A stretch of DNA of 64,000 bases. Source: Saccharopolyspora thermophila (GTDB lineage: Bacteria > Actinomycetota > Actinomycetes > Mycobacteriales > Pseudonocardiaceae). The stretch's first letter is position 1, and each line of letters begins with the position of its first letter. The notes below the pieces were generated by a model. It had not been told where the DNA came from, did no database searches, and saw nothing but the letters and a program-made list of their open reading frames with translations. This document shows positions 829-14,573 of this stretch, piece by piece. The stretch spans positions 1 through 64,000 of the forward strand of contig NZ_BMMT01000012.1 of the NCBI RefSeq assembly GCF_014646075.1, given 5' to 3'. Position numbers and translations under genes: made by a program.

Positions 829-2223
829 TCAGGTGGTGCAGGTGGCGTCTCGGATCGGTTTGGCCTGGCTTTCGTACACCCCGGCGCTGGAGGCGCCCTG
901 GATCTGGAAGCAGTATTGGAGGACCGGGTCGATCCGCAGCCGGAGCCGGGTGTCGCGCCGCACGAAGATCGTGTCGGAGGGCTGCCCTTCGGGCGCGACG
1001 ATCACCGCGTAGTCAAGCGGCTCGCTGCTACGCCACGACAGCTCGACATGGTCGCCCTTGTCCACCGGGTCATCGAGTTCGAGGCGAACGGGCGGTGGTG
1101 CGGGCTGCACGGGTGCGGGCCCGGCGACCGGCGCGGAAGCGACCGGCACGTCGAGCTTCGCGGGCTGGCTCACCAGCAGGGCGACCAACGCGACGGCCAG
1201 GACCGACAGCACGCCGACAGCGGCGATGACGATGCCCGCGCGCGGCTTTCCCCGGGCCTTGTCGTTCGGCCCGAACTGCACGAGCAGCTCACCCCTCGGC
1301 CGCGGCGGGACCGCGGTGGGGGGCCCAGCGGGTAACGCGGTCGGCTCGGCAGGCGGCTGCCGGACAGCGTTGCCGGGCACCGCACCACCGAAGTCGTCGA
1401 ACGCGGGTTGTGCCGGCACCGGCCCGATCATGGCGCCGAGCCGGGCGGCGACCGTCGCCGCGTCGAGCGGACGCGCGTCGGGGTTCTTCGCCAGCAGCGC
1501 CGAAACCAGCTGGGCGAGCCCGGCCGGCAGGTCGGCCCGCTCCAGCGCGGGCACCTCGCCGCTGAGCGCACGCAGCAGCCGCGCGTCCACCGGCTCGCCA
1601 GGACGTCCCTGGTGCGGCGACGAACCCGACAGCGCGAAGTACAGAACCGCGCCCAGCCCGTACAGATCGGTCCGCTCGGTGCGGGTGCCATCCCGCAGGG
1701 TTTCCGGCGCCAGAAAGTCGACACCAGCGGACACCTCGCCGGGGAAAGCACGGCGCAACGTGAGGCCGAAGTCGGCGAGCACCGGCTCCCCCGAAGGGCG
1801 GAACAGCACGTTGCCCGGGGTGACGGCGCCGTGCACGAGCCCGGCCGCATGTGCGGCCGCGAGCGCGGTCGCCAGCGCGCTGCCCAGAGCGAGCACGTCG
1901 GGAATGGTGAGCGGCCCGAACGAGGCGACGAGCTCCGGCATCGACTGGGCGCACAGCTCCATCCGCAGCGCGCAGCGGCCGTCGGGCAGTTCCTCGACGC
2001 GGTCGGCCACCACAACGCCCGCCCGCGCGCGCAGCTCGGCAAGCCTGCGCAGTTCGGTGTCGAGTTCGCTGCGTGTGCGCCGGTCGATCGGTCCCGGATA
2101 GATCTTCAGCGCGAACGCCGCACCGCCCTGCTCGTCGACGCTCGCGAACACCGTGGCAACCGGTCCCTCGCCGAGGGGAACGAGTTCGTCGTCTTCGGGG
2201 GATGTCGTCATCGCGGTGGTCAT
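829..2223 (-). CDS. Membrane Ser/Thr protein kinase homologue, probable pseudokinase
   Basis: A protein of 464 residues. Residues 14-265 read as a PknB-like kinase fold: Gly loop LGEGPVATVF, beta-3 Lys40 in FALKIY, and DFG at 151-153. The catalytic loop is HGAVTPGN (131-138) instead of HRDLKPEN, so both the catalytic Asp and the following Lys are missing (Ala133, Thr135). A Pro-rich linker precedes one membrane helix at 329-352, followed by an extracellular fibronectin-III-like domain with two Cys near the end. Loss of the HRD Asp predicts weak or no phosphotransfer and a binding or signalling role. It is divergent from eccD, with 136 bp between them, and probably senses or regulates the secretion system. 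The domain call is firm; inactivity is inferred. Confidence 0.85.
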   Translation of the reverse strand: MTTAMTTSPEDDELVPLGEGPVATVFASVDEQGGAAFALKIYPGPIDRRTRSELDTELRRLAELRARAGVVVADRVEELPDGRCALRMELCAQSMPELVASFGPLTIPDVLALGSALATALAAAHAAGLVHGAVTPGNVLFRPSGEPVLADFGLTLRRAFPGEVSAGVDFLAPETLRDGTRTERTDLYGLGAVLYFALSGSSPHQGRPGEPVDARLLRALSGEVPALERADLPAGLAQLVSALLAKNPDARPLDAATVAARLGAMIGPVPAQPAFDDFGGAVPGNAVRQPPAEPTALPAGPPTAVPPRPRGELLVQFGPNDKARGKPRAGIVIAAVGVLSVLAVALVALLVSQPAKLDVPVASAPVAGPAPVQPAPPPVRLELDDPVDKGDHVELSWRSSEPLDYAVIVAPEGQPSDTIFVRRDTRLRLRIDPVLQYCFQIQGASSAGVYESQAKPIRDATCTT

Positions 2224-2359: not shown

Positions 2360-3738
2360 ATGACGACGAACCTCGTCAGGGTGACCATCGACGCGCCGGC
2401 TCGCCGCATCGACCTCGCGTTGCCGGAGCGCTCGTCGGTGGCCGAAATCCTGCCGGGGCTGCTGCGCCGCGCGGGCGAGAGCCTGCCGGACGACGGCGTC
2501 ACCGACGGCGGCTGGCTGCTGCGCCGCACCGACGGCACCGAGCTCGACCTCGGCCGGACTCTCGGCACGCACGGGATCCGCGACGGCGAGATCCTGCACC
2601 TGGTGCCCCGGCGCCTGCACTGGCCCGAACTCGAGTACGACGATCTCGCCGACACCATCGCGCAGGGAGCCGGGCGCACCGGCCGCCTGTGGGGTCCTGC
2701 GCACACGCGCGCCGCGGGGCTGCTGGTCGGGTCATTGGCCGCCCTGCTGGCGCTGCTGGCGGTGGTGCGGGCCGGGCCTGCGTGGGGCACGGCGGCCTGG
2801 GTCGCTCTGGGGTTCTGCGCCGCGCTGCTCGCGGCGGGGACCGCGCTGGCCCGGGCGCTGGGAGACGCCGGTGCGGGCGCCGTCATCGCCGCGCTGGCGT
2901 TGCCGTTCGCCTTCACCGGCGGCGGGCTGCTCCTCGGCAGCGGGCCGCCGCCCGCCGCATTCGGCGCACCGCACGTGCTCGCCGGATGCTCGGCGCTCGT
3001 GGTCGCATCGGCACTCGGCTATGCCGGCGTGGTGGAACGCGCCGAGCTGTTCCTCGCGGGCATCACCGTTGGCCTGGTGGGTGCGCTCGCGTCGTGGCTG
3101 GCGACCACACAGGCACTGGACGGCGTGGACGGGGCGGCGGTGGCTGCCGTGGCAGTGCTGCTGTTCTCGCCGCTGTTCGGCCCGCTGACGATCCGGCTGG
3201 CCAGGGTCCCGATGCCGGTTCTCCCCCGCAGCACGGCCGATCTGGTGCGCGACGATCCGCAGCCACCGCGGCACGCGGTGTACGCCGCGGTGCTGCGCGC
3301 GGACCAGCTGCTGACCGGCATGATCGGTGGCGCGACGGTGGTCACCGTGCTGTGCGTGTTCGTCATCGCGCAGGAGGCGAGCACCTCGGTGATGGTGCTG
3401 CTGTCCGTGCTGTCGGCGGGTTTCTGCCTGCGCGCCCGTCTTTATCCGGCCCTGCGGCACCGGGCGCCGCTGCTGCTTGCGGGCGTGTCGAGCGGGGGTG
3501 CGCTCGCCGCCGGACCCGTCATGGCCGCTACGGGGGCCTGCTCGCCGTCACCGCACCGGCCCTGATCGCCGTGGGCGGCCTGGCCGTCCTGGCCGGGCTC
3601 ACCCACAGCAGGCGGCTGCCCAGCCCGTTTCTCGGCCGGTCCGCGGAACTGCTCGAGGTCGTGATCGTGCTCGCCTGCGTGCCCGTCCTGTGTGCCGTGC
3701 TGGGTCTGTACGGGCTCGTGCGCGGGCTTGGCGGGTGA
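2360..3738 (+). pseudogene. eccD: EccD, type VII secretion integral membrane channel protein (frameshifted as sequenced)
   Basis: EccD forms the multi-helix membrane core of ESX secretion. The first 85 residues form the ubiquitin-like cytoplasmic domain typical of EccD, then hydrophobic helices run to the end. As sequenced, the frame stops at 3565 after 401 codons, but the family C-terminus continues in the next frame from about 3537 to TGA 3738. Adding one G to the five-G run at 3532-3536 joins the frames (AATGGLLAVTAP) and gives 459 residues, a normal family length. The stop overlaps the GTG start of eccB. The break is therefore either a one-base sequencing loss or a recent inactivation. 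Confidence 0.88.
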
Positions 3739-5208: not shown

Positions 5209-6492
5209 TCAGCTGTCCGCCGGTGGCGGCGGCACCAGGAACATCTCCTGCGGCAGGTCCTCGCGCGCCGGCTCGGCCGGCGGGAGGGCGGCGCGGCGGG
5301 GGTGCCAGCGCGTCCGCCGTCCCCGAACCACCACCAGCACCGCCACCCCGCCCAGCGCCACGCCCGCCCCGGTGAGGATCGCCGCGGTGCGGGCGTTCGA
5401 GGTGCTGGCGTCCCACCAGGCGGAGACGCGCAGCCGCGCCGCGTCCGGCACGGGATGCTGCACCGGTGGCAACGGTGCGGGCGCCGCATCGACGAGGCCG
5501 TCGGTCAGCGCTCGATACGGGTTGACCAGCCCGGCGCCATAGGCGGCGCTGTCCCGGCCGCCCGGCGCTGGGGTCGCGGTGGCGAGAATCCGCTCGACGA
5601 CCTCCTCGGCGGACAGCTCCGGCCAGGCCGACCGCACCAGCGCCGCGGTGGCCGACACGAACGCCGCGGCGAAGCTGGTCCCGTCCCGGTACTGGTGTCC
5701 GCCCGCCCGGGCCGCACTCAGCACACCTCCGCCCGGGGCCACCAGGTCCACCTGCGGCCCGATCTGCGAGCTCGGCAGCCGGGTACCGGACATGTCCACC
5801 GCACCGACACCGAGCACCCCGTCGTAGCCGGCGGGATAGGTCACGGGGCCTGGCGCCGTGCCCTGCTGCGCGTTGCCCACCGCTGCCACCACGACGATGT
5901 CCTTCTCGACCGCGTACCGGATCGCGTCGCGCACGTAGTGGTTGTCGAGTCCTCCCGCGACGGACAGGTTGATGACGTCAGCACCGTGATCGGCCGCGTA
6001 CCAGATGCCCCTGGCGAGCACCTCCGGGTCGATGGCCTGCGCGGCGCCGTCGGCCACGTCCCGCTCGCTGACGCGCACCGGCAGGATCGTGGCGTCCGGG
6101 GCCAAACCGGCGAACCCGATGCCGTCGACCGGGCTGGCGGCGATGATGCTGGCCACGGCCGTGCCGTGCGAGACGCAGTCGAAGTTGCCCGGCAGGTCCC
6201 CGACGAGGAAGAAGTCCTCGCCGCGCAGGACCTTTCCGGGTTGCCGTAGCTGCGGATGGTCGGCGTCCACTCCGGAGTCGATCACGGCGACCACCACCCC
6301 GACACCGGTGCCGTGCTGCCACACGGCCCGCGCGTCGAGCGTCTTCTGCGCCCAGGGCAGCTCGGTGACGGTGGGGCTTGCCGGATCGACGTCACCGCAC
6401 GCGCCGGGCGGTGGTGCGGCCCGTGCCACACCGGGGTTGACGAGGACGGCCGCCGCGAACGCGACGGCCGTCACCAGTCTACTGGTCCTCAT
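5209..6492 (-). CDS. mycP: MycP, type VII secretion-associated serine protease (mycosin)
   Basis: Subtilisin-like membrane-anchored protease needed for ESX function. The start at 6492 gives a signal peptide (MRTSRLVTAV.., cleaved near ARA-AP), then the S8 domain with Asp72 in VIDSGVD, His109 in SHGTAVAS, the oxyanion Asn region GNAQQ and Ser273 in GTSFAAAF. A Pro-rich stretch, a C-terminal membrane helix (about GVALGGVAVLVVV) and a short basic tail follow. All three catalytic residues are present. Its ATG overlaps the stop of the upstream EspC-like gene (ATGA), so the two are translationally coupled. A longer in-frame start at 6603 would put extra residues before the signal peptide and is unlikely. 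Confidence 0.93.
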   Translation of the reverse strand: MRTSRLVTAVAFAAAVLVNPGVARAAPPPGACGDVDPASPTVTELPWAQKTLDARAVWQHGTGVGVVVAVIDSGVDADHPQLRQPGKVLRGEDFFLVGDLPGNFDCVSHGTAVASIIAASPVDGIGFAGLAPDATILPVRVSERDVADGAAQAIDPEVLARGIWYAADHGADVINLSVAGGLDNHYVRDAIRYAVEKDIVVVAAVGNAQQGTAPGPVTYPAGYDGVLGVGAVDMSGTRLPSSQIGPQVDLVAPGGGVLSAARAGGHQYRDGTSFAAAFVSATAALVRSAWPELSAEEVVERILATATPAPGGRDSAAYGAGLVNPYRALTDGLVDAAPAPLPPVQHPVPDAARLRVSAWWDASTSNARTAAILTGAGVALGGVAVLVVVRGRRTRWHPRRAALPPAEPAREDLPQEMFLVPPPPADS

Positions 6493-6833
6493 CGCCACGT
6501 GGACGTTTCCTGGTCGTTTGTCCCGGTCAGCCTCCGGACCGAGCTGGTTCCCTGGTGCTCCGCCGCGAGGTAGTCCCGGACGCAGCCCAGCGCGTCGTCG
6601 CACAGTCTCCCGTACGAGGTGGGAATGGCATCGGCGTTGGCCATCAGCTTCTCGGCGAGCGGCTGGTACTTCTCCAGGAACGCCTGGGCGAGCCCGTCGT
6701 GGCCGAAGCCGGACTGGGCGGCCTGGATCGCCTTCTTACGGCTTTCCCATGCGCTGCCGAACGCCTCCCCGGCGGCCCGCAGCCGGTTGATGCTGCGCGT
6801 GACGGCGTCCGGGTCCATGTCGTAGTCCGCCAT
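6489..6833 (-). CDS. Small EspC/WXG100-like secretion-associated protein
   Basis: A protein of 114 residues, predicted entirely helical. The central part (SAWESRKKAIQAAQSGFG) sits where the WXG turn of the ESX helical-hairpin fold would be, and the sequence resembles EspC-like ESX secretion-associated proteins. It has no signal peptide. It lies between the YbaB-like gene (2 bases apart) and mycP (4-base overlap), so it is part of the ybaB-espC-mycP operon. It may be a secreted partner or a structural component. The exact family is uncertain. Confidence 0.7.
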   Translation of the reverse strand: MADYDMDPDAVTRSINRLRAAGEAFGSAWESRKKAIQAAQSGFGHDGLAQAFLEKYQPLAEKLMANADAIPTSYGRLCDDALGCVRDYLAAEHQGTSSVRRLTGTNDQETSTWR

Positions 6834-6835
6834 CG

Positions 6836-7210
6836 CTACGCCCCCTCGATCTTCTCGTTGAGATGGTGGAGGAACGGATCGGTGTGCACGTCGGTGTTCT
6901 CGAACTTCGCGTTGGGTGGCAGGTACTGGCGGGTGATCTCGAACAGCTGCTCCCGGGACTGCTCGACGGCGTCCCTGATCGTGTCCACAATGGAAGCGGC
7001 GAGGGCCTGGGAGTCCGTCGTCCGGTAGATCCGCGGATCGAGGTGCAGCTCGCTCACCTCGCCCCGGCCGACCACGGTGGCCCTGATCAGGCCGTCGGGG
7101 GACTCCGCGGTCGCCTCAATGTCGGCGATCCTCGTCCGGATGTCGAACAGGTCGTCGCGCAGTCGTTCGTAGTCCGCCCTTCGCCGGGCCACGTCGATCC
7201 TCGGTGCCAT
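6836..7210 (-). CDS. YbaB/EbfC-family protein
   Basis: A protein of 124 residues. A helical N-terminus (RRADYERLRDDLFDIRTRI) is followed by the short beta hairpin typical of the YbaB/EbfC fold (IRATVVGRGEVSELHLDPRIY) and a long C-terminal helix. YbaB proteins are small DNA-binding or nucleoid-associated proteins, and members are often encoded beside ESX genes in actinomycetes. The start at 7210 is supported by AAGGAG five bases upstream. It is the first gene of the operon leading to mycP and is divergent from the substrate-like gene at 7366. Confidence 0.75.
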   Translation of the reverse strand: MAPRIDVARRRADYERLRDDLFDIRTRIADIEATAESPDGLIRATVVGRGEVSELHLDPRIYRTTDSQALAASIVDTIRDAVEQSREQLFEITRQYLPPNAKFENTDVHTDPFLHHLNEKIEGA

Positions 7211-7365: not shown

Positions 7366-8988
7366 ATGGCCGAGGCAGCGGGAGGCGGCGGCAACGCTGG
7401 CGGCGGGGGCGGTGCACCGGCTGGGTCCGGCGGTGGCGGCGGCCAGTCCGGCGGTGGCGGCGGGTCGGCTCCCGCCGAGTCCAAGCCCGCCGAGTCCAAG
7501 TCTGCGGACCCCAAGCCTGAGTCGAAATCCGCGGAATCCAAGCCTGCGGAGTCCACACCGGCGGACTCCAAGCCCGCCGAGTCGGCACCTGCCGAATCCA
7601 AGCCTGACGAGTCCAAAACCGCGGAGTCCAAGCCCTCAGGCGACCAGCCCCCGGGGTCAGAGGGGCAACGGACTTCCGAGGAACAGCCTGCCGGGCAGGG
7701 CAAAGGTGCCGACAACACGCAGGAGAAGGGCACCGGAACCCAGCAGCCTGGCAGCCACGAGTTCGATGACCGCGTGACGGCCGAGGCCCCGCTGCCGGAC
7801 TCGGATCCGGCCTCCATGCGTGCCGCGGCGGACAACCTTCGCGCGTCGGGGACTCGCGATGCTCCGGAAGCCGCCGACGAGGCCGACCGCGCGGCACGCG
7901 ACCTCGGGGAGAACTTCGGCGGAGAACCGGGAAAGCAACTCACCACGCAGGTGGCCAAGCAGGCCGAGCAGACCCGGGCGGTCGGCCAGGACAGCGGCAG
8001 GCTTGCCGACGACGTCGATCGCGCCGCCGACATCGTCGAGAAGACCACGCAGGAGCGCAAGGCCGACCTCGATCACGGCAGGTCCATCTACGCGATGGCC
8101 GACACCCTGCCGCCGGGCGAGGACATCGTGGCGAAAGAACGCACGGTGGCTGACGCCGTGCGTCGCGGTCACGACGTGATGGATCAGGCCCGCAGGGAGA
8201 TGCGGGACACCGTTGGCGGTTGGGCGGACGGCGCGCGAAACGCCGCCAACGCCGCTCCGCCGGCGGCACCGGGTGCGGGTCAGGCGACACCCGCAGCCGG
8301 AACCGCTCCGCCGGCGGCGTCGGCAGCGGCTGGCGCGCAGGGCACTGTCCGGCAGGCCGGCCAGAAGCTGGACGAGGCCCAGACCTCCCTGGCACAGGCC
8401 GGCGACTGGGACGACTTCATGGACCCCCGCACCGAGAACCCCGTCTACCGCGAGTTCCGTCGGCTGGTCAACGAAACCGGGGAGCGCGTGCGGGAGGCGG
8501 GCCGGTGGTTGCTGACGGTCGAGCCGGAAGGACCGGATGCCGACATCACCCCGAAGGGGCCCGGCCCCGGTGGCGGGGTCGCCAGCATCGAAGCGGAGGC
8601 CCTCGCCGACCACGGCAAGTGGCACGCCTTCGGTGGTGCGGTCAACGGCGAGTACTCGGCCGGGGCTTACGGGTCCGGCCAGCTGAACATGCCGGACTCG
8701 GAGGATCCCCTCCTCGAGGCCGACGTGCAGCTGGGCGCGAAGGCGAACCTCGACGAGATCAACGTGGTCGACGCCGGGCCGCTTTCGGTGTCCATCAAGC
8801 CGGAAGCCCGGGTCGGCCCCGGCGCGGGCCTGGAGCTCAACGTGCAGGAGGAGAACGGACAGCTGAGCCTCAAGGGTGAGGGCTCGGCGTCCCCGATCGT
8901 CGGCGGCGGACTCGGCCTGGACGTCAAGGTCGACCTGAACGAGCTCAACCAGAGCCTCGAGTCCATCCGGCGCTCCATCTTCGGCTGA
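7366..8988 (+). CDS. Large repeat-rich candidate type VII secretion substrate
   Basis: A protein of 540 residues with no signal peptide. Residues 1-35 are almost all Gly/Ala, and residues 36-90 are repeats of the AESKP type. Residues 145-295 are strongly helical and charged, like the helical domains of ESX substrates, with GGWADG near 284-289. After an Ala/Pro linker, a C-terminal region (about 390-540) is rich in Gly and alternates polar and hydrophobic residues, as in beta-rich secreted domains. The start at 7366 has GGGAG upstream. It lies inside the ESX locus with a small partner gene 11 bases downstream. Secretion and function are inferred from context; the C-terminal domain was not recognised. 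Confidence 0.6.
   Translation: MAEAAGGGGNAGGGGGAPAGSGGGGGQSGGGGGSAPAESKPAESKSADPKPESKSAESKPAESTPADSKPAESAPAESKPDESKTAESKPSGDQPPGSEGQRTSEEQPAGQGKGADNTQEKGTGTQQPGSHEFDDRVTAEAPLPDSDPASMRAAADNLRASGTRDAPEAADEADRAARDLGENFGGEPGKQLTTQVAKQAEQTRAVGQDSGRLADDVDRAADIVEKTTQERKADLDHGRSIYAMADTLPPGEDIVAKERTVADAVRRGHDVMDQARREMRDTVGGWADGARNAANAAPPAAPGAGQATPAAGTAPPAASAAAGAQGTVRQAGQKLDEAQTSLAQAGDWDDFMDPRTENPVYREFRRLVNETGERVREAGRWLLTVEPEGPDADITPKGPGPGGGVASIEAEALADHGKWHAFGGAVNGEYSAGAYGSGQLNMPDSEDPLLEADVQLGAKANLDEINVVDAGPLSVSIKPEARVGPGAGLELNVQEENGQLSLKGEGSASPIVGGGLGLDVKVDLNELNQSLESIRRSIFG
7471..7635 (+). repeat. AESKP-type short tandem repeats within a gene
   Basis: About eleven degenerate 4-6 residue units (AESKP, AESKS, ADPKP, AESTP, ADSKP, AESAP, DESKT) encoded by near-repeats of GCCGAGTCCAAGCCC. 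They probably form an extended charged linker between the Gly-rich head and the helical domain. Confidence 0.85.
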
Positions 8989-9002
8989 CCTGGGAGGAAC
9001 GC

Positions 9003-9524
9003 ATGGCAGCGCCGGGATCGATCGAGTTCCCGCTCCCCGCCCGGTGGCACCCCGTGTCACCGGGCGAACTGAACCTCGACGTCGCGTTTCTCGCGATCAG
9101 GCTCGACACCCACGGCTCGGGCTTCACCGCCACCGTGGTGATCGAGGGCATGACCCTGGAACCGGGCTCGTCGCTGACCGACCTGGCCGACCATGCCGCG
9201 GCGGCGCAGCCGACGGGAATCGTGATCAGCCGCTCGGCCTGGGAGGGCCCCCGCGGGCCGCGGCTGCGGCAGGTGCTGCGCCTGACCGACGGGGCCGGCC
9301 CGAGACTGCGGTGGTTGGTGCGGGTGGAGGAGTACGCCGTCCTCCAGGAGGGCGGTCTGCCCACCGGACTTCCCGTGCTCCGCGCGACGTCGACCGCCAC
9401 GCTCGAGCAGGCCGAGGCGATCGCGACCGACTTCGAGCTGATGGTGTCCGGCCTCGATTCGGACTCACCCACGGCCGACCGGACGGCCGTCCAGCGGCAC
9501 CACCACCCGGCGCACGGGACGTGA
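9003..9524 (+). CDS. Small LpqN/DUF1795-like protein, possible substrate chaperone
   Basis: A protein of 173 residues. It starts SIEFPLPARWHPV and shows an alternating beta pattern with one helix (GSSLTDLADHAAAA) and a C-terminal helix (LEQAEAIATDFELMV), resembling the Mog1/PsbP-like fold of the LpqN and DUF1795 families. It has no signal peptide or lipobox, unlike LpqN itself. The start has GGAGG five bases upstream, and the gene is 14 bases after the candidate substrate, so the two form an operon and may act as cargo and chaperone. The fold assignment is tentative. Confidence 0.5.
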   Translation: MAAPGSIEFPLPARWHPVSPGELNLDVAFLAIRLDTHGSGFTATVVIEGMTLEPGSSLTDLADHAAAAQPTGIVISRSAWEGPRGPRLRQVLRLTDGAGPRLRWLVRVEEYAVLQEGGLPTGLPVLRATSTATLEQAEAIATDFELMVSGLDSDSPTADRTAVQRHHHPAHGT

Positions 9525-9570: not shown

Positions 9571-9606
9571 GCACGTCCCGGAGCGCTTCGGCGCACCGGG
9601 ACGTGC
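9571..9606. terminator. Strong bidirectional hairpin terminator
   Basis: GCACGTCCCGG pairs with CCGGGACGTGC over 11 bp. Inside lies an A/A mismatch, then GCGC-TTCG-GCGC, a four-base-pair extension closed by a stable TTCG loop. It sits between the convergent genes ending at 9524 and 9619. Confidence 0.8.
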
Positions 9607-9618
9607 CGATCAATGCCG

Positions 9619-9909
9619 TCAGGAACCCAGTCGGCTGCAGCAGCGCTGCACCGCGGCCATGTTCTGCTGGTTGCAGGTCTGGACACCCTGGTTCATGGCC
9701 TGCATCAGCTCCTGGCCAGCAGCCATGACCTGCTGGCAGGCCCTGCTGATCTCGGCGAACTGTCCGCCCGCCTGGTCGAGCCAGTCTGCCTCGCCCATCC
9801 CCGACACCTGGCGCCAGGAGTCAATCGACTGCTGAACGCCCTGGACGCAGCTGTTCATGTTCATCGACAGGGCGTCCAGCGCGCCGAACATCGCGAGTTT
9901 GCGAGTCAC
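9619..9909 (-). CDS. WXG100-like ESX protein
   Basis: A protein of 96 residues with the length and all-helical layout of WXG100 proteins. A Trp-containing turn (EADWLDQAGGQF) sits between two amphipathic helices; the residue after Trp-x is Asp, not Gly. It is unusually rich in Met, Gln and Cys, with a CC pair near the C-terminus. The GTG start at 9909 has AGGAG upstream. It is 39 bases downstream of the second WXG100-like gene on the same strand, so the two probably form an EsxA/EsxB-like pair divergent from eccC. Confidence 0.75.
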   Translation of the reverse strand: MTRKLAMFGALDALSMNMNSCVQGVQQSIDSWRQVSGMGEADWLDQAGGQFAEISRACQQVMAAGQELMQAMNQGVQTCNQQNMAAVQRCCSRLGS

Positions 9910-9948: not shown

Positions 9949-10377
9949 TCACAGGGCGCGCAGCACCCCGGCGAACGCGTAGCTCTCACCGGAAGACCCC
10001 TTGTCGTCGTCGGAGTCACCGCCACCGTCGTGGTCGCCGCCACCGTGGGCGCCATCGAGGCCACCGTCGTCGATACCGCTGAAGCAGGAGGCACCCTGCT
10101 GGTCGACGTCGAGGTAGTCGTTCAAGGCGAAGTTGGTGTCGTTGCCCAGCTTCTCCAGCTTCTCGCACAGGTTCTTGATCGCCTTGTCCCACTTCCGGTG
10201 CGCGACGAGCAGCGCCCGGGACTGGTCCATGTTCCACTGGGCGGGGATGACGGAGTTCACCTCACCGTCCAGCTTGCTGCGATGGCCTTCGATTTCCTGC
10301 ACGACCACCGCCGCCATCTGCACCACTCGAGCGAGTGTTTCCGTATTGGCGTCCAGCAGACCGCCACCAGCATTCAC
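9949..10377 (-). CDS. WXG100-like ESX protein with acidic Gly-rich tail
   Basis: A protein of 142 residues. Residues 8-95 form the helical hairpin of the WXG100 type with the turn PAQWNMDQSRA (Met at the Gly position). The rest is a Gly/Asp/His-rich acidic tail (DDGGLDGAHGGG) ending in ESYAFAGVLRAL, where YAF could be part of a secretion signal. The GTG start at 10377 is chosen because AAGGAG lies just upstream, the same Shine-Dalgarno context as the YbaB-like gene. It pairs with the 96-residue protein downstream and is divergent from eccC, about 200 bp apart. Confidence 0.7.
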   Translation of the reverse strand: MNAGGGLLDANTETLARVVQMAAVVVQEIEGHRSKLDGEVNSVIPAQWNMDQSRALLVAHRKWDKAIKNLCEKLEKLGNDTNFALNDYLDVDQQGASCFSGIDDGGLDGAHGGGDHDGGGDSDDDKGSSGESYAFAGVLRAL

Positions 10378-10580
10378 CGGATTCTCCTTCCCTCCACACG
10401 GCTCACGCCGTCCACAGTGCTGCCGCGCGGAACCCGCGGCAGGGTGCGGGCACGATCGGACGCTAGCCGTGTCACCGCCGTCGGCAGGTGCGCACGGCAC
10501 GTTCCTGCCACGCACGCCGTTGGTCCACCAGGTCGCGATGACAATCGCTGGCATCAGTGCACGGGCAAGAAGGGATCGTC

Positions 10581-13500
10581 ATGGCCGCGGTCGTGGTGCG
10601 TAGGCCGGTTCGCCGGCCCGCTCCGGAGCAACCCTCCGGTGAGCTCGTCCTGGACCCGCCGCCCGAGATCCCGCAGCCGTCCGGCAGGCCGTGGACGCAG
10701 GTTTTCATGGTGATCCCGATGATCGCCATGATGGCCGCGATGGCGCTGATGTTCTCCGGAAACTTCGGGCAGGGCAACGGAGTTCTGCGGCTGGTGGTCC
10801 TCGGTCTCTTCGGCGTCGGCATGCTGGGCATGCTCGCGGTCACCCTGATCAACTCCTCCGGTCCCAGCAAGCGCGAGATGGGCCAGGAACGCCGGAGCTA
10901 TCTCCGTCACCTGGGACAGCACCGGCTGCGGCTGACCCGCGCGATCCACCAGCAACGCGACGCCATGGTGTACCTGCATCCGGAACCGGCGGCCCTGCTG
11001 TCCCTCGTCGCGAGCTACCGCCTGTGGGAACGCCGCCCGGTCGACGCCGACTTCGGGGTCGCCCGCATCGGCACCGGTGCACAGCGCCCGGCGATCACGC
11101 TCGTGCCACCGGAGGCCAAGCCGCTGGAGCGGTTGGAGCCGCTGTCCGCGCTCGCGCTGCGCCGGTTTCTCACCACGTACTCGGCCATTCCCGGGCTGCC
11201 GCTGGCCATGGCGGTCAACGGGTTCAACCGGATCTACGTCCACGGTGACCGGGACCGGTCGGCGGCGCTGGTCCGTGCGGTGCTCGCGCAGCTCGCGTCG
11301 TTGCACGCGCCGGACGATCTGCGGATCGCGGCCTGCCCGGGCGCTGACGCGCAGGCGCAGTGGGAATGGCTCAAGTGGCTGCCGCACGCCCTGCATCCGG
11401 AGCGGACGGACGCCGTGGGGCCGCTGCGGCTCGTGGCACCCTCGATCGTCTCGATCGAGGCGATGATCGACGACCTGCTGGGCAAGCGGACGAGGTTCGA
11501 CCCCGCGGTCGACAATCGGGAGGCGATGCCGCACGTCGTCGTGGTCCTGGACGGGGGTTCGACCGCCGGCTCGGACGCCCTCCTGGCGGACGGCGGGCTC
11601 GAAGGTGTCACCATCATCGACCTGCGCTCCCCGCCGCCCCGCGCTCTCGACCCGGCGACCATCGTGTTGCGGGTCGGGCAGGACGGCGCCCTCGCCAGCG
11701 AAACAATCGACGGCGCGGTCGATCTCGGCTGGGCCGACGCGCTGGATGTGCCGGCGGCGGAAGGCATCGCCCGCCAGCTGGCACCGCTGCGGACGACCGC
11801 GGGTCGGCTCGGCGAGCAACCGATGAACACCGACCTCGACCTCGCCGAGCTGCTCGGCATCGGCGACCCCCGCACGTTCGACCCCGCCGAAACGTGGGTG
11901 CGGCGACCGACCAGGGACACCCTGCGGATCCGGTTCGGCATCCGGCCCGACGGGACGCCGGTCGAACTGGACCTGAAAGAGTCCGCCCAGGACGGGATGG
12001 GGCCGCACGGCCTGCTGATCGGCGCCACCGGGTCCGGCAAGAGCGAACTGCTGCGAACCATCGTGCTGGCGCTGGCGGTGACCCACCCACCGAGCTCGCT
12101 GAACTTCGCGCTCGTCGACTTCAAGGGCGGTGCCACGTTCGCCACGCTCGACAAGCTCCCGCACACCAGCGCGGTCATCACCAACCTCGCCGACGAGCTG
12201 CCGCTCGTGGACAGGATGACCGAAGCGATCACCGGCGAGCTGCTGCGCAGGCAGGAACTACTGCGCGCGGCCGGCAACTTCACGTCGCTACGCGAGTACG
12301 AACGGGCTCGCGCCACCGGCGCTCCGCTGCCCGAGGTTCCCACCCTGCTGGTGATCTGCGACGAGTTCAGCGAACTGCTGTCCGCCAAGCCCGACTTCAT
12401 CGACATGTTCGTGCAGATCGGCCGGGTCGGACGGGCACTGGGCGTGCATCTGCTGCTGGCCAGCCAGCGTCTGGAGGAAGGCAGGCTCCGGGGTCTGGAA
12501 ACCCACCTGTCGTACCGGATCGGGTTGCGCACCTTCTCGGAAGTGGAGAGCCGCAACGTGCTCGGCGTCGGGGATGCCTTCAAGCTCCCGCGCGCACCGG
12601 GTCATGGATTCCTCAAAACCGACGACGGACCCATGATCCGGTTCCGCTCGGCGTACGTCTCGGGGGTGCACCGCGCGCCGGAGGTGAGCACCGGCGAGCC
12701 GGGCGACGACGGTGCTGGCGAGTTGCTCGAGTACTCCACGCAGTACCTGCCGCCCGCCGTCGACGCGGGCGAGGCGGCGGAGGCGCCGGATGACGAGGAC
12801 GCGGTCGGCGAAAGCCTGCTGGACATCATCGTCGAGCGGATGCGGGGTCGCGGCACGCCCGCGCATCAGGTCTGGCTGCCGCCCCTGGCCGAGTCGCCCA
12901 CGCTCGACCGGCTGCTGCCCGGCCTGGTCCGCGACGACGACCGCGGGTTCGGCTGCACGCACGAGGAGCTCGCGGGAGCCCTGCGCGCCGTCATCGGGAT
13001 CATCGACCGGCCGATGGAACAGCGCCGCGATCCACTGGTGCTGGATCTGTCCGGATCGGCGGGGCACGTGCTCGTGATCGGTGGGCCGCGGTCGGGCAAG
13101 AGCACCGCGCTGCGGTCGATCATCACCAGCCTCGCCCTGACCCACACACCGCGCGAGGTGCAGTTCTACTGCCTGGATTTCGGCGGCGGCACGCTGACCT
13201 CACTCCGCGGCCTGCCCCACGTCGGCGGCGTCGCGGGCCGGCAGAACGTCGGCGCGGTACGGCGGACGATCGCCGAGCTGCGGGCTTTGATCGCGCAGCG
13301 CGAGCGCACCTTCGCCGAAAACGAGATCGACGGAATGCAGTCCTGTCGTCGGCTGCTGCGCGCTGAAGGAACAGCCGTCGACGCCTGGGGTGACGTGTTC
13401 CTCGTCATCGACGGCTGGGCGACGCTGCGTACCGAGTTCGAGGACCTGGAGGCGGTCGTGGCCGACATCGCCGCGCGCGGCCTCGCCTACGGCGTCCACG

Positions 13501-14573
13501 TGATCGTGTCCGCTGCCCGCGTGTTCGACCTGCGCATGAACATCAGGGACCTGTTCGGCAGCAAGCTCGAGCTGCGCATCGGCGATCCGGTCGACAGCAT
13601 GGTCGACCGGGCGTCGGCGATCAAGGTTCCGGAGGGCGCGCCGGGCCGTGGTGTCACGATGCACAGGCACCAGATGCTGATCGCGCTGCCGCGGATCGAC
13701 GGCGTCGACGATCCGGCTGATCTCACGCGCGGGGTCCGCGAGCTGGTGGAGACGGTGTCCTCGGCCTGGCACGGCCCGCCCGCCCCCGCCGTGCGGCTGC
13801 TGCCCGCGACGGTGCCGTACGAGGAGCTGGTCGGCTCCCACGACGCCGCCGCGCACCGCCTGGCGGTGGGTATCGCCGAACACGACCTCGGCGCGGTGCA
13901 CCTGGACTTCGCCTCGGACGCCCACCTGGTGCTCCTCGGAGACACCGAAGCGGGTAAGACCACCTTCCTCCGTGCACTCACCCGAGCCATCGTGGACAGC
14001 TACGAACCCAGGCAAGCGCGCCTGATCGTCATCGACCACCGACGCGGCCTGCTCGGCGACGTCGAGTCCGAGCACCTCATCGGCTACGGCACGGATCGGG
14101 ACTCGACGTCCCGGCTGATGCGGCAGGTGGCCGGAGAAATGGCCGTGCGACTGCCGGGACCGGACGTCACACCGGAACAGCTGCGGGAACGCAGCTGGTG
14201 GCAGGGGCCCGAGCTGTTCATCCTGATCGACGACTACGACCTCGTGGTCAACCAGCTGGACAACCCGTTCCTGCCGCTTTTGGACTTCCTCCCCCAGGGC
14301 CGCGACATCGGGATGCACGTCGTGCTGGCCCGCCGCACGGGAGGCGCCAGCCGAGCGCTGTTCGAACCGTTCATCTCCCGGCTGCGCGACATCGGATCAC
14401 CGGGCCTGCTGATGTCCGGGGACAAGGACGAGGGCCCGCTCCTGGGAGGGCTGAAACCCGAACCGCTCCCGCCGGGCCGGGCGTGGCTGGTCGGCAGGCG
14501 GCATCCTGCGCGGCTCGTCCAACTCGCCTGGCTGCCCCAGGCCCAGCACCTGTCGCCGACCGAGAGCGGGTGA
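10581..14573 (+). CDS. eccC: EccC, type VII secretion FtsK/SpoIIIE-like triple ATPase
   Basis: The motor and substrate-recognition ATPase of ESX systems, here a single fused protein of 1,330 residues. Two membrane helices lie at about 40-59 and 69-90. Three FtsK/SpoIIIE domains carry Walker A motifs GATGSGKS (about 481), GGPRSGKS (834) and GDTEAGKT (1120). Walker B-type strands are LLVICDEF in domain 1, VFLVIDGW in domain 2 and LFILIDDYD in domain 3. All three P-loops keep Lys and Ser/Thr. The ATG at 10581 has AAGGGA upstream; an earlier GTG at 10557 is less likely. Mycobacterial ESX-1 splits this into EccCa and EccCb. The downstream genes nearly touch it, so it heads an operon. Confidence 0.95.
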   Translation: MAAVVVRRPVRRPAPEQPSGELVLDPPPEIPQPSGRPWTQVFMVIPMIAMMAAMALMFSGNFGQGNGVLRLVVLGLFGVGMLGMLAVTLINSSGPSKREMGQERRSYLRHLGQHRLRLTRAIHQQRDAMVYLHPEPAALLSLVASYRLWERRPVDADFGVARIGTGAQRPAITLVPPEAKPLERLEPLSALALRRFLTTYSAIPGLPLAMAVNGFNRIYVHGDRDRSAALVRAVLAQLASLHAPDDLRIAACPGADAQAQWEWLKWLPHALHPERTDAVGPLRLVAPSIVSIEAMIDDLLGKRTRFDPAVDNREAMPHVVVVLDGGSTAGSDALLADGGLEGVTIIDLRSPPPRALDPATIVLRVGQDGALASETIDGAVDLGWADALDVPAAEGIARQLAPLRTTAGRLGEQPMNTDLDLAELLGIGDPRTFDPAETWVRRPTRDTLRIRFGIRPDGTPVELDLKESAQDGMGPHGLLIGATGSGKSELLRTIVLALAVTHPPSSLNFALVDFKGGATFATLDKLPHTSAVITNLADELPLVDRMTEAITGELLRRQELLRAAGNFTSLREYERARATGAPLPEVPTLLVICDEFSELLSAKPDFIDMFVQIGRVGRALGVHLLLASQRLEEGRLRGLETHLSYRIGLRTFSEVESRNVLGVGDAFKLPRAPGHGFLKTDDGPMIRFRSAYVSGVHRAPEVSTGEPGDDGAGELLEYSTQYLPPAVDAGEAAEAPDDEDAVGESLLDIIVERMRGRGTPAHQVWLPPLAESPTLDRLLPGLVRDDDRGFGCTHEELAGALRAVIGIIDRPMEQRRDPLVLDLSGSAGHVLVIGGPRSGKSTALRSIITSLALTHTPREVQFYCLDFGGGTLTSLRGLPHVGGVAGRQNVGAVRRTIAELRALIAQRERTFAENEIDGMQSCRRLLRAEGTAVDAWGDVFLVIDGWATLRTEFEDLEAVVADIAARGLAYGVHVIVSAARVFDLRMNIRDLFGSKLELRIGDPVDSMVDRASAIKVPEGAPGRGVTMHRHQMLIALPRIDGVDDPADLTRGVRELVETVSSAWHGPPAPAVRLLPATVPYEELVGSHDAAAHRLAVGIAEHDLGAVHLDFASDAHLVLLGDTEAGKTTFLRALTRAIVDSYEPRQARLIVIDHRRGLLGDVESEHLIGYGTDRDSTSRLMRQVAGEMAVRLPGPDVTPEQLRERSWWQGPELFILIDDYDLVVNQLDNPFLPLLDFLPQGRDIGMHVVLARRTGGASRALFEPFISRLRDIGSPGLLMSGDKDEGPLLGGLKPEPLPPGRAWLVGRRHPARLVQLAWLPQAQHLSPTESG

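What the first reader, a model, noticed from the sequence alone, without database searches (positions are those of the whole stretch)
7366..9524. Candidate large ESX substrate with a small partner
The 540-residue protein combines a Gly-rich head, AESKP repeats, a helical ESX-like region and an unrecognised Gly-rich C-terminal domain. The next gene, 14 bases away, encodes a small LpqN/DUF1795-like protein and is followed by a strong terminator. Cargo plus chaperone is the simplest reading.
Basis: inference. Interest (0 to 1): 0.55.

Follow-up and report, generated by a model that had tools for sequence, protein, structure and literature searches.

The report
ESX cargo with a cytosolic partner
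Two neighbouring genes inside a bacterial protein-export locus look like a large exported protein and the small helper that goes with its tail domain, and the same pair recurs in many related soil bacteria.

Summary
In detail: P0001 (7366-8988, 540 aa) and P0002 (9003-9524, 173 aa) lie 14 bases apart inside an ESX core locus. P0001 has a Gly head, AESKP repeats, a WXG100-like hairpin with FGG at the turn, and a strictly alternating beta-meander C-terminal domain without a Pfam match. P0002 is predicted to have the PsbP/Mog1 fold of LpqN and of T6SS Eag chaperones.

New: the C-terminal domain and the partner travel as a pair. Of 133 places encoding the domain in 248 family genomes, 121 have the partner directly downstream, whatever the N-terminus. 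Of nine carriers with Sec-type or membrane N-termini, seven lack it. All nine P0001-type cargoes found lie in one ESX subtype, where sister cargoes carry other tails (NucB-like, DUF6973).

Best reading: a polymorphic-toxin-like ESX cargo plus a dedicated cytosolic chaperone for its beta domain. A neutralising (immunity) partner is the main rival. Secretion, binding and toxicity are untested. EccD of this genome is frame-shifted in the data, so its own ESX may not work.

The parts
7366..8988 (+). P0001, large ESX cargo candidate, 540 aa
   Evidence: 78% identical overall in G052 and 41% in G041 = Prauserella muralis contig by length and place
7366..7467 (+). Gly-rich head, residues 1-34
   Evidence: 59% Gly
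7468..7635 (+). AESKP-type repeats, residues 35-90; length and repeat letters are not conserved among relatives
7807..8100 (+). WXG100-like helical hairpin, residues 148-245, FGG (184-186) at the turn
   Evidence: AlphaFold2 model; W/F-x-G/D at this turn in the nine P0001-type proteins aligned; Pfam WXG100_2 above cut-off in four of them
8089..8103 (+). YAMAD (YxxxD), residues 242-246
   Evidence: of the nine P0001-type proteins only the window, L018 and L019 have a strict YxxxD in this region (read from the alignment)
8515..8934 (+). C-terminal beta-meander domain, residues 384-523
   Evidence: strands in the model, pLDDT 45-76; profile A8; lag-2 hydropathy autocorrelation 0.59 over 105 columns and 185 domain hits
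8935..8982 (+). C-terminal helix, residues 524-539
9003..9524 (+). P0002, partner with predicted PsbP/Mog1 fold, 173 aa, no signal peptide (9003 is the first possible start after the stop)
   Evidence: AlphaFold2 mean pLDDT 82; Foldseek and VIA-align 2
9571..9606 (.). GC-rich hairpin between convergent genes, no U-tract on the + strand
6836..7210 (-). YbaB-like gene; directly downstream of the partner in Prauserella muralis (L093)
   Evidence: Pfam PF02575 E 6.8e-13
6489..6833 (-). small helical gene of the ESX locus; no Pfam or NCBIfam match of its own
   Evidence: conserved in sister loci
5209..6603 (-). mycosin
   Evidence: TIGR03921 306 bits
3744..5147 (+). EccB
   Evidence: PF05108; start from the match to L018
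2360..3735 (+). EccD, split over two frames near 3.5 kb
   Evidence: PF19053; tblastn
9619..9909 (-). WXG100-like small gene, marker of this ESX subtype
   Evidence: 12 of 248 family genomes have a relative at 64% identity or more
9949..10554 (-). WXG100 gene (as the long ORF)
   Evidence: PF06013 28.9 bits, over its cut-off
10557..14573 (+). EccC
   Evidence: TIGR03924 and TIGR03925

Best explanation
P0001 is a resident cargo of its own ESX machine. Its disordered head and WXG100-like hairpin form the targeting part; its C-terminal beta-meander is the exported payload. P0002 is the dedicated cytosolic chaperone of that payload: made from the next gene, it binds the amphipathic beta domain, keeps it soluble and inactive, and is shed when EccC takes the hairpin. 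The YbaB-like gene may be a second helper, as EspH/EspL-type proteins are in mycobacterial ESX-1. Shown here: gene order, folds at model level, co-occurrence, location in the ESX locus, modular swaps of N-termini and tails. Inferred: secretion, binding, release, and any membrane activity of the payload.
For: Of 133 domain places in 248 family genomes 118 have the partner 59-290 bp downstream on the same strand, 121 after row cut-offs and a contig end were resolved; in genomes that gave no profile seed 86 of 94. In 346 phylum-wide genomes both profiles hit the same three, side by side. The pairing follows the C-terminal domain: the N-terminus may be T7SS_signal-like (85 of 88 with partner), a WXG hairpin, or EspA/EspE type (L135, E 1.9e-24). 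Carriers with a Sec signal peptide lack it: 0 of 7; against 2 with membrane-type N-termini that have it (Fisher 3e-7 against the T7SS_signal class, not corrected for ancestry). P0002 model: LpqN Z 14.0, EagT6 12.2, SciW 11.7; Foldseek LpqN 1.3e-5, SciW-Rhs1 9.4e-4. ESX link. In three loci of this ESX subtype without the cargo no full-length partner was found; one keeps a 100-codon partner remnant.
Against: No binding or secretion data. The fold also occurs in immunity protein Tsi3 (Z 9.0) and in lipoproteins (LpqN). Sister cargoes of the subtype carry a NucB-like tail and small genes with weak immunity-type similarity follow some tails, so P0002 could stand in an immunity slot. Three T7SS_signal carriers lack an adjacent partner (L109, L111, L112) and two carriers with membrane-type N-termini have one (L021, L057). 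32 of 150 listed partner rows had no domain hit next to them. Strict YxxxD is not conserved. EccD of this genome is frame-shifted. The Sec carriers fall into perhaps four lineages.
Confidence: 0.58

Rival explanations
1. Toxin and immunity. The beta domain is the toxic tip of a polymorphic ESX toxin (possibly membrane-active), and P0002 neutralises it in the producer.
For: In sister loci the same head and hairpin carry other tails: NucB-like (PDB 5omt, E 3.7e-11) and DUF6973 (E 2.8e-18 to 4.9e-19 or better); the NucB-like cargo is followed by a gene with weak DUF2625 similarity (E 7.6e-4, under cut-off) and another P0001-like cargo by one with weak SMI1/KNR4 similarity (E 0.019, under cut-off). 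Tsi3 has a similar fold (Z 9.0). In Mycobacterium abscessus prophages an LpqN-like lipoprotein was proposed as the immunity protein of a WXG-100 toxin (PMC8092301, passages).
Against: Seven Sec-exported carriers of the domain lack the partner. P0002 has no signal peptide, so it could not shield a membrane from outside. The domain is better conserved than the rest of P0001 (search identities 78% and 63% for the C-terminal 205 aa; 78% and 41% for the whole), unlike most polymorphic tips. The DUF6973 cargoes of L222 and L224 have no small gene directly downstream.
Confidence: 0.24
2. Envelope module. The beta domain is a non-toxic structural or lipid-binding envelope domain, and P0002 is an LpqN-like accessory for its assembly, perhaps co-exported.
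For: Sec-exported carriers join the domain to charged, pentapeptide or Gly-rich stretches. The fold is that of envelope proteins LpqN and MTC28.
Against: P0002 has no export signal; LpqN and Sec carriers differ in that respect. It does not explain why the P0001 group shares its N-terminal module with NucB-tailed cargoes.
Confidence: 0.12
3. Decaying locus. In this strain the ESX machine and its cargo are no longer used.
For: EccD lies in two frames near 3.5 kb.
Against: P0001, P0002, EccB, EccC and mycosin are open over the length matched in G052, 75-90% identical. A sequencing error in a 59-contig assembly is as likely.
Confidence: 0.06

Closest known systems
Eag (DUF1795) chaperones of T6SS effectors, e.g. 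SciW, EagT6 (PMC12881460, passages)
   Same: PsbP/Mog1 fold, gene next to the effector, cytosolic, proposed to hide a membrane-active segment
   Different: Eag proteins hold transmembrane helices of prePAAR effectors for VgrG loading; here the constant neighbour is a beta-meander domain in an ESX cargo; no Pfam DcrB match over cut-off
LpqN / MTC28 lipoprotein and antigen family of mycobacteria
   Same: closest solved folds, Z about 14
   Different: P0002 has no signal peptide or lipobox and no LpqN match over cut-off
WXG-100 polymorphic toxin with LpqN-like lipoprotein as proposed Imm, Mycobacterium abscessus prophages (PMC8092301, passages)
   Same: ESX-type cargo beside an LpqN-like gene
   Different: there a lipoprotein, in a prophage; here a cytosolic protein in a chromosomal ESX locus; homology not tested; tblastn of P0002 and of a relative's beta domain found nothing in the phage collection
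EspH / EspL / EspD YbaB-like chaperones of ESX-1 (PMC6107294, passages; PMC6319747, listing)
   Same: small cytosolic helper of one Esp cargo; the window locus also has a YbaB-like gene
   Different: another fold from P0002
EspG and EsaE chaperones (PMC11217815, passages; PMC10653861, abstract)
   Same: dedicated cytosolic chaperones of T7SS cargoes
   Different: EspG fold and binding to the helical bundle tip; here the partner follows the C-terminal domain
PF21725 T7SS_signal proteins
   Same: 13 of 20 relatives that carry the same C-terminal domain have it
   Different: P0001 itself does not

Membership tests
ESX (T7SSa) substrate | helical hairpin with WXG-type turn | tested here: met
   model hairpin with FGG at the break; WXG100_2 over cut-off in 4 of 6 P0001-type proteins scanned singly, not in P0001 itself. 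The top VIA rows include PPE4 (Z 11.2) and EspB (8.9) but arfaptin and SNX5 tie
ESX (T7SSa) substrate | YxxxD/E after the second helix | tested here: inconclusive
   YAMAD present in P0001; strict motif in 3 of 9 P0001-type proteins
ESX (T7SSa) substrate | encoded with ESX core genes | tested here: met
   EccB, EccC, EccD and mycosin in the window; 9 of 9 P0001-type loci
ESX (T7SSa) substrate | EccC-dependent export | not testable with these tools
   needs a mutant
T7SS_signal (PF21725) | match to the Pfam model | tested here: not met
   no match for P0001
Eag chaperone (PF08786 / DUF1795) | PsbP/Mog1 fold | tested here: met
   (model level)
Eag chaperone (PF08786 / DUF1795) | Pfam match over cut-off | tested here: not met
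Eag chaperone (PF08786 / DUF1795) | neighbour is a prePAAR effector of T6SS | tested here: not met
   neighbour P0001 has no such Pfam match and lies in an ESX locus
LpqN family (PF10738) | lipoprotein or secreted, Pfam match | tested here: not met
   no upstream start codon before 9003; no match over cut-off
Polymorphic toxin family | one N-terminal module with exchangeable tails | tested here: met
   hairpin profile hits on proteins with NucB-like and DUF6973 tails in sister loci
Polymorphic toxin family | tail is toxic and the next gene gives immunity | not testable with these tools
   needs expression

The most novel reading that the evidence does not exclude
ESX exports a whole class of amphipathic beta proteins that assemble into beta-barrel pores in an envelope or a target membrane, each kept soluble by an Eag-like PsbP-fold chaperone: the same chaperone fold recruited by T6SS and T7SS for membrane-inserting payloads.
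Probability: 0.15. Interest if true: 0.82.

Novelty: new variant of a known kind. Interest (0 to 1): 0.55.

Why it matters
ESX chaperones known to me or met in the papers seen here have EspG or YbaB-like folds and serve the helical part of the cargo. A PsbP-fold partner tied to the C-terminal payload would be a second principle, close to the Eag chaperones of T6SS, and gives a one-gene test of how ESX handles beta-rich, membrane-prone cargo. Eight literature searches listed no paper that, from listing or passages, describes such a pair in an ESX system; this covers open PMC papers only. The plasmid records inspected call these genes hypothetical protein.

Tried and rejected
Searches that led nowhere: PDB sequence search with P0001 (best E 0.099); PHROGs for four proteins; phage collection by tblastn with P0002 and with a relative's beta domain. 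Fold search of the beta domain gave nothing at E 0.001; in the second look only outer-membrane barrels at Z about 5-6 with rmsd 11-14 appear for that part, which I do not use as evidence for a barrel. The mycomembrane-porin idea is weakened because the cassette also occurs in Streptomyces, which have no mycolate layer (recalled).

Against my reading, told again: first gave 118 of 133 with 15 without; three of these were resolved (G161 and G146, where one search finds the partner; G056:C41, partner cut by the contig end). Twelve stay without: seven Sec-type, one with its 5' end at a contig edge (L022), three T7SS_signal-like, and one 3126-aa frame (G227:C11) that I did not resolve. The lists are capped and only the best first-look candidates were scored, so counts are lower bounds. 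The Sec call is my own rule (six) plus one by eye (L120); L021 and L057 were called membrane-type by eye. The T7SS_signal class is my own profile from 13 relatives, not Pfam. In one search the 'no signal peptide' test for relatives uses the nearest start codon, so it shows only that a short start exists (124 of 125 within 12 aa); for P0002 itself one search is firm. The Mantel value 0.81 is expected for linked genes.

Full report
1. Setting. The window holds an ESX core: protein kinase 829-2223 (-), EccD from 2360, EccB to 5147, mycosin 5209-6603 (-), a small gene 6489-6833 (-), a YbaB-like gene 6836-7210 (-), P0001, P0002, two WXG100-type genes (-), EccC 10557-14573. P0001 and P0002 have good ribosome-binding sequences and 14 bases between them.

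2. P0001. A Gly head and AESKP repeats precede a predicted hairpin (148-184, 186-245) with FGG at the break; then an Ala/Pro-rich linker, a short helical stretch, and a beta meander (384-523) ending in a helix (406-residue model, mean pLDDT 63.5; the beta part has only 45-76). The beta domain's profile shows strict alternation of hydrophobic and polar columns: autocorrelation -0.56, 0.59, -0.55, 0.41 at lags 1 to 4 over 105 columns, 185 domain hits; none of 5000 shuffles reached the lag-2 value. That fits amphipathic strands; it does not tell a membrane barrel from a soluble sheet.

3. P0002. The model (mean pLDDT 82) matches Jonesia 3lyd (Z 14.6), MTC28 (14.4), LpqN (14.0), Mog1 (13.1), PsbP (12.5), EagT6 (12.2), SciW (11.7), DcrB (11.3), and more weakly Tsi3 (9.0); Foldseek agrees. 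By sequence the link is weak.

4. The pair is widespread. Single-sequence searches found the C-terminal 205 residues in 8 of 249 family genomes and P0002 in 29 of 298 order genomes. Neighbourhoods showed that partner relatives mostly follow a protein ending in the same Gly-rich beta domain. Profiles A8 (domain) and A2 (partner) then hit 94 and 104 of 248 family genomes. Of 133 distinct domain places 118, and after resolving three 121, have the partner directly downstream. Because the profile seeds came from paired loci, I counted genomes that gave no seed: 86 of 94 places in 75 genomes. In 346 phylum-wide genomes each profile hit three, the same three and side by side. Named examples: Prauserella muralis, Saccharothrix deserti, Streptomyces bicolor.

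5. The partner follows the tail, not the head. Among 136 distinct carriers, 125 have the partner. Of 88 with a T7SS_signal-like N-terminus 85 have it; of seven with a Sec signal peptide none has it; of two with a membrane-type N-terminus both have it; one is truncated at a contig edge and lacks it; the other 38 have it. One carrier has an EspA/EspE-family N-terminus (L135). One has an Ntox28 domain upstream of the beta domain (L057). If the partner were needed against a toxic tail, Sec-exported copies should need it too; a cytosolic chaperone for ESX cargo explains their lack. This is the main reason why I prefer chaperone to immunity. The Sec carriers are few and partly related.

6. P0001 belongs to one ESX subtype. 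A hairpin profile collects nine P0001-type cargoes (window, L018, L019, L194, L197, L204, L205, L211, L215; more distant hits to other WXG-type cargoes also appear). All nine loci hold EccC (77-90% identical to the window's) and mycosin. By contrast 11 loci of the T7SS_signal type showed no relative of eight window ESX proteins within about 10 kb at E 1e-6. The subtype marker (gene 9619-9909) occurs at 64% identity or more in 12 of 248 family genomes; nine have the domain there. The other three (G020, G058, G111) lack the domain; G020 keeps a 100-codon partner remnant, and no partner hit is listed for the other two.

7. Exchangeable tails. In L222 the same head-plus-hairpin occurs in three tandem cargoes: one with the beta domain and partner, one with DUF6973, one with a NucB-like nuclease tail (PDB 5omt, E 3.7e-11) followed by a gene with weak DUF2625 similarity. 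L223 has the same arrangement by eye. L221 has a P0001-like cargo followed by a gene with weak SMI1/KNR4 similarity; L224 and L225 have DUF6973 cargoes. So P0001 is one member of a polymorphic-toxin-like set.

8. Mechanism. I commit to chaperone, 0.58; immunity 0.24; envelope module 0.12; decay 0.06. A chaperone that holds the beta domain would also neutralise it, so the first two may merge.

9. Prior work. T6SS operons with PsbP/MOG1 adaptors: PMC3482391 (passages). Eag chaperones: PMC12881460 (passages). LpqN-like lipoprotein proposed as Imm of a WXG-100 toxin: PMC8092301 (passages). YbaB-like chaperones EspH and EspL: PMC6107294 (passages). EspG, EspK and EsaE: PMC11217815 (passages). I saw no account of a PsbP-fold partner tied to the tail of an ESX cargo in the eight searches named above.

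10. Caution on this genome: relatives of EccD match the window in two frames that change near 3.5 kb, a real break or an assembly error.

Noticed in passing
window 2360-3735: EccD is split over two reading frames near 3.5 kb when compared with L018 and L224; either the strain's ESX is broken or the assembly has an error.
   Followed up: partly
L222 9258-15767, L223 9769-15562: Tandem ESX cargoes with one head-and-hairpin type and different tails (beta domain, DUF6973, NucB-like), with a small gene of weak DUF2625 similarity after the NucB-like one in L222.
   Followed up: partly
L098 7095-7805, L101 7097-7807, and 9 of 32 cassette loci: A gene of about 235-290 aa, in the cases read with an N-terminal transmembrane segment, often follows the cassette; possible immunity or accessory gene.
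   Followed up: no
L076 5353-6936, L130 3316-3606, L133 5380-6150: Lipoprotein-like relatives of the partner; those of L076 and L130 lie a short way upstream of a cassette.
   Followed up: no
L135 6173-7438: The beta domain is fused to an EspA/EspE-family N-terminus in a genome of another family of the order (G327), with the partner downstream.
   Followed up: partly
L217, L218, L219 (Streptomyces plasmids): Linear plasmids carry the partner gene, in two of three after a full-length hypothetical gene; that gene was not tested for the beta domain.
   Followed up: partly
L115 4457-8197: Very long Sec-exported carrier whose N-terminal half begins with a GDSY stretch like an SGNH hydrolase (recalled motif; Pfam gave nothing).
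   Followed up: no
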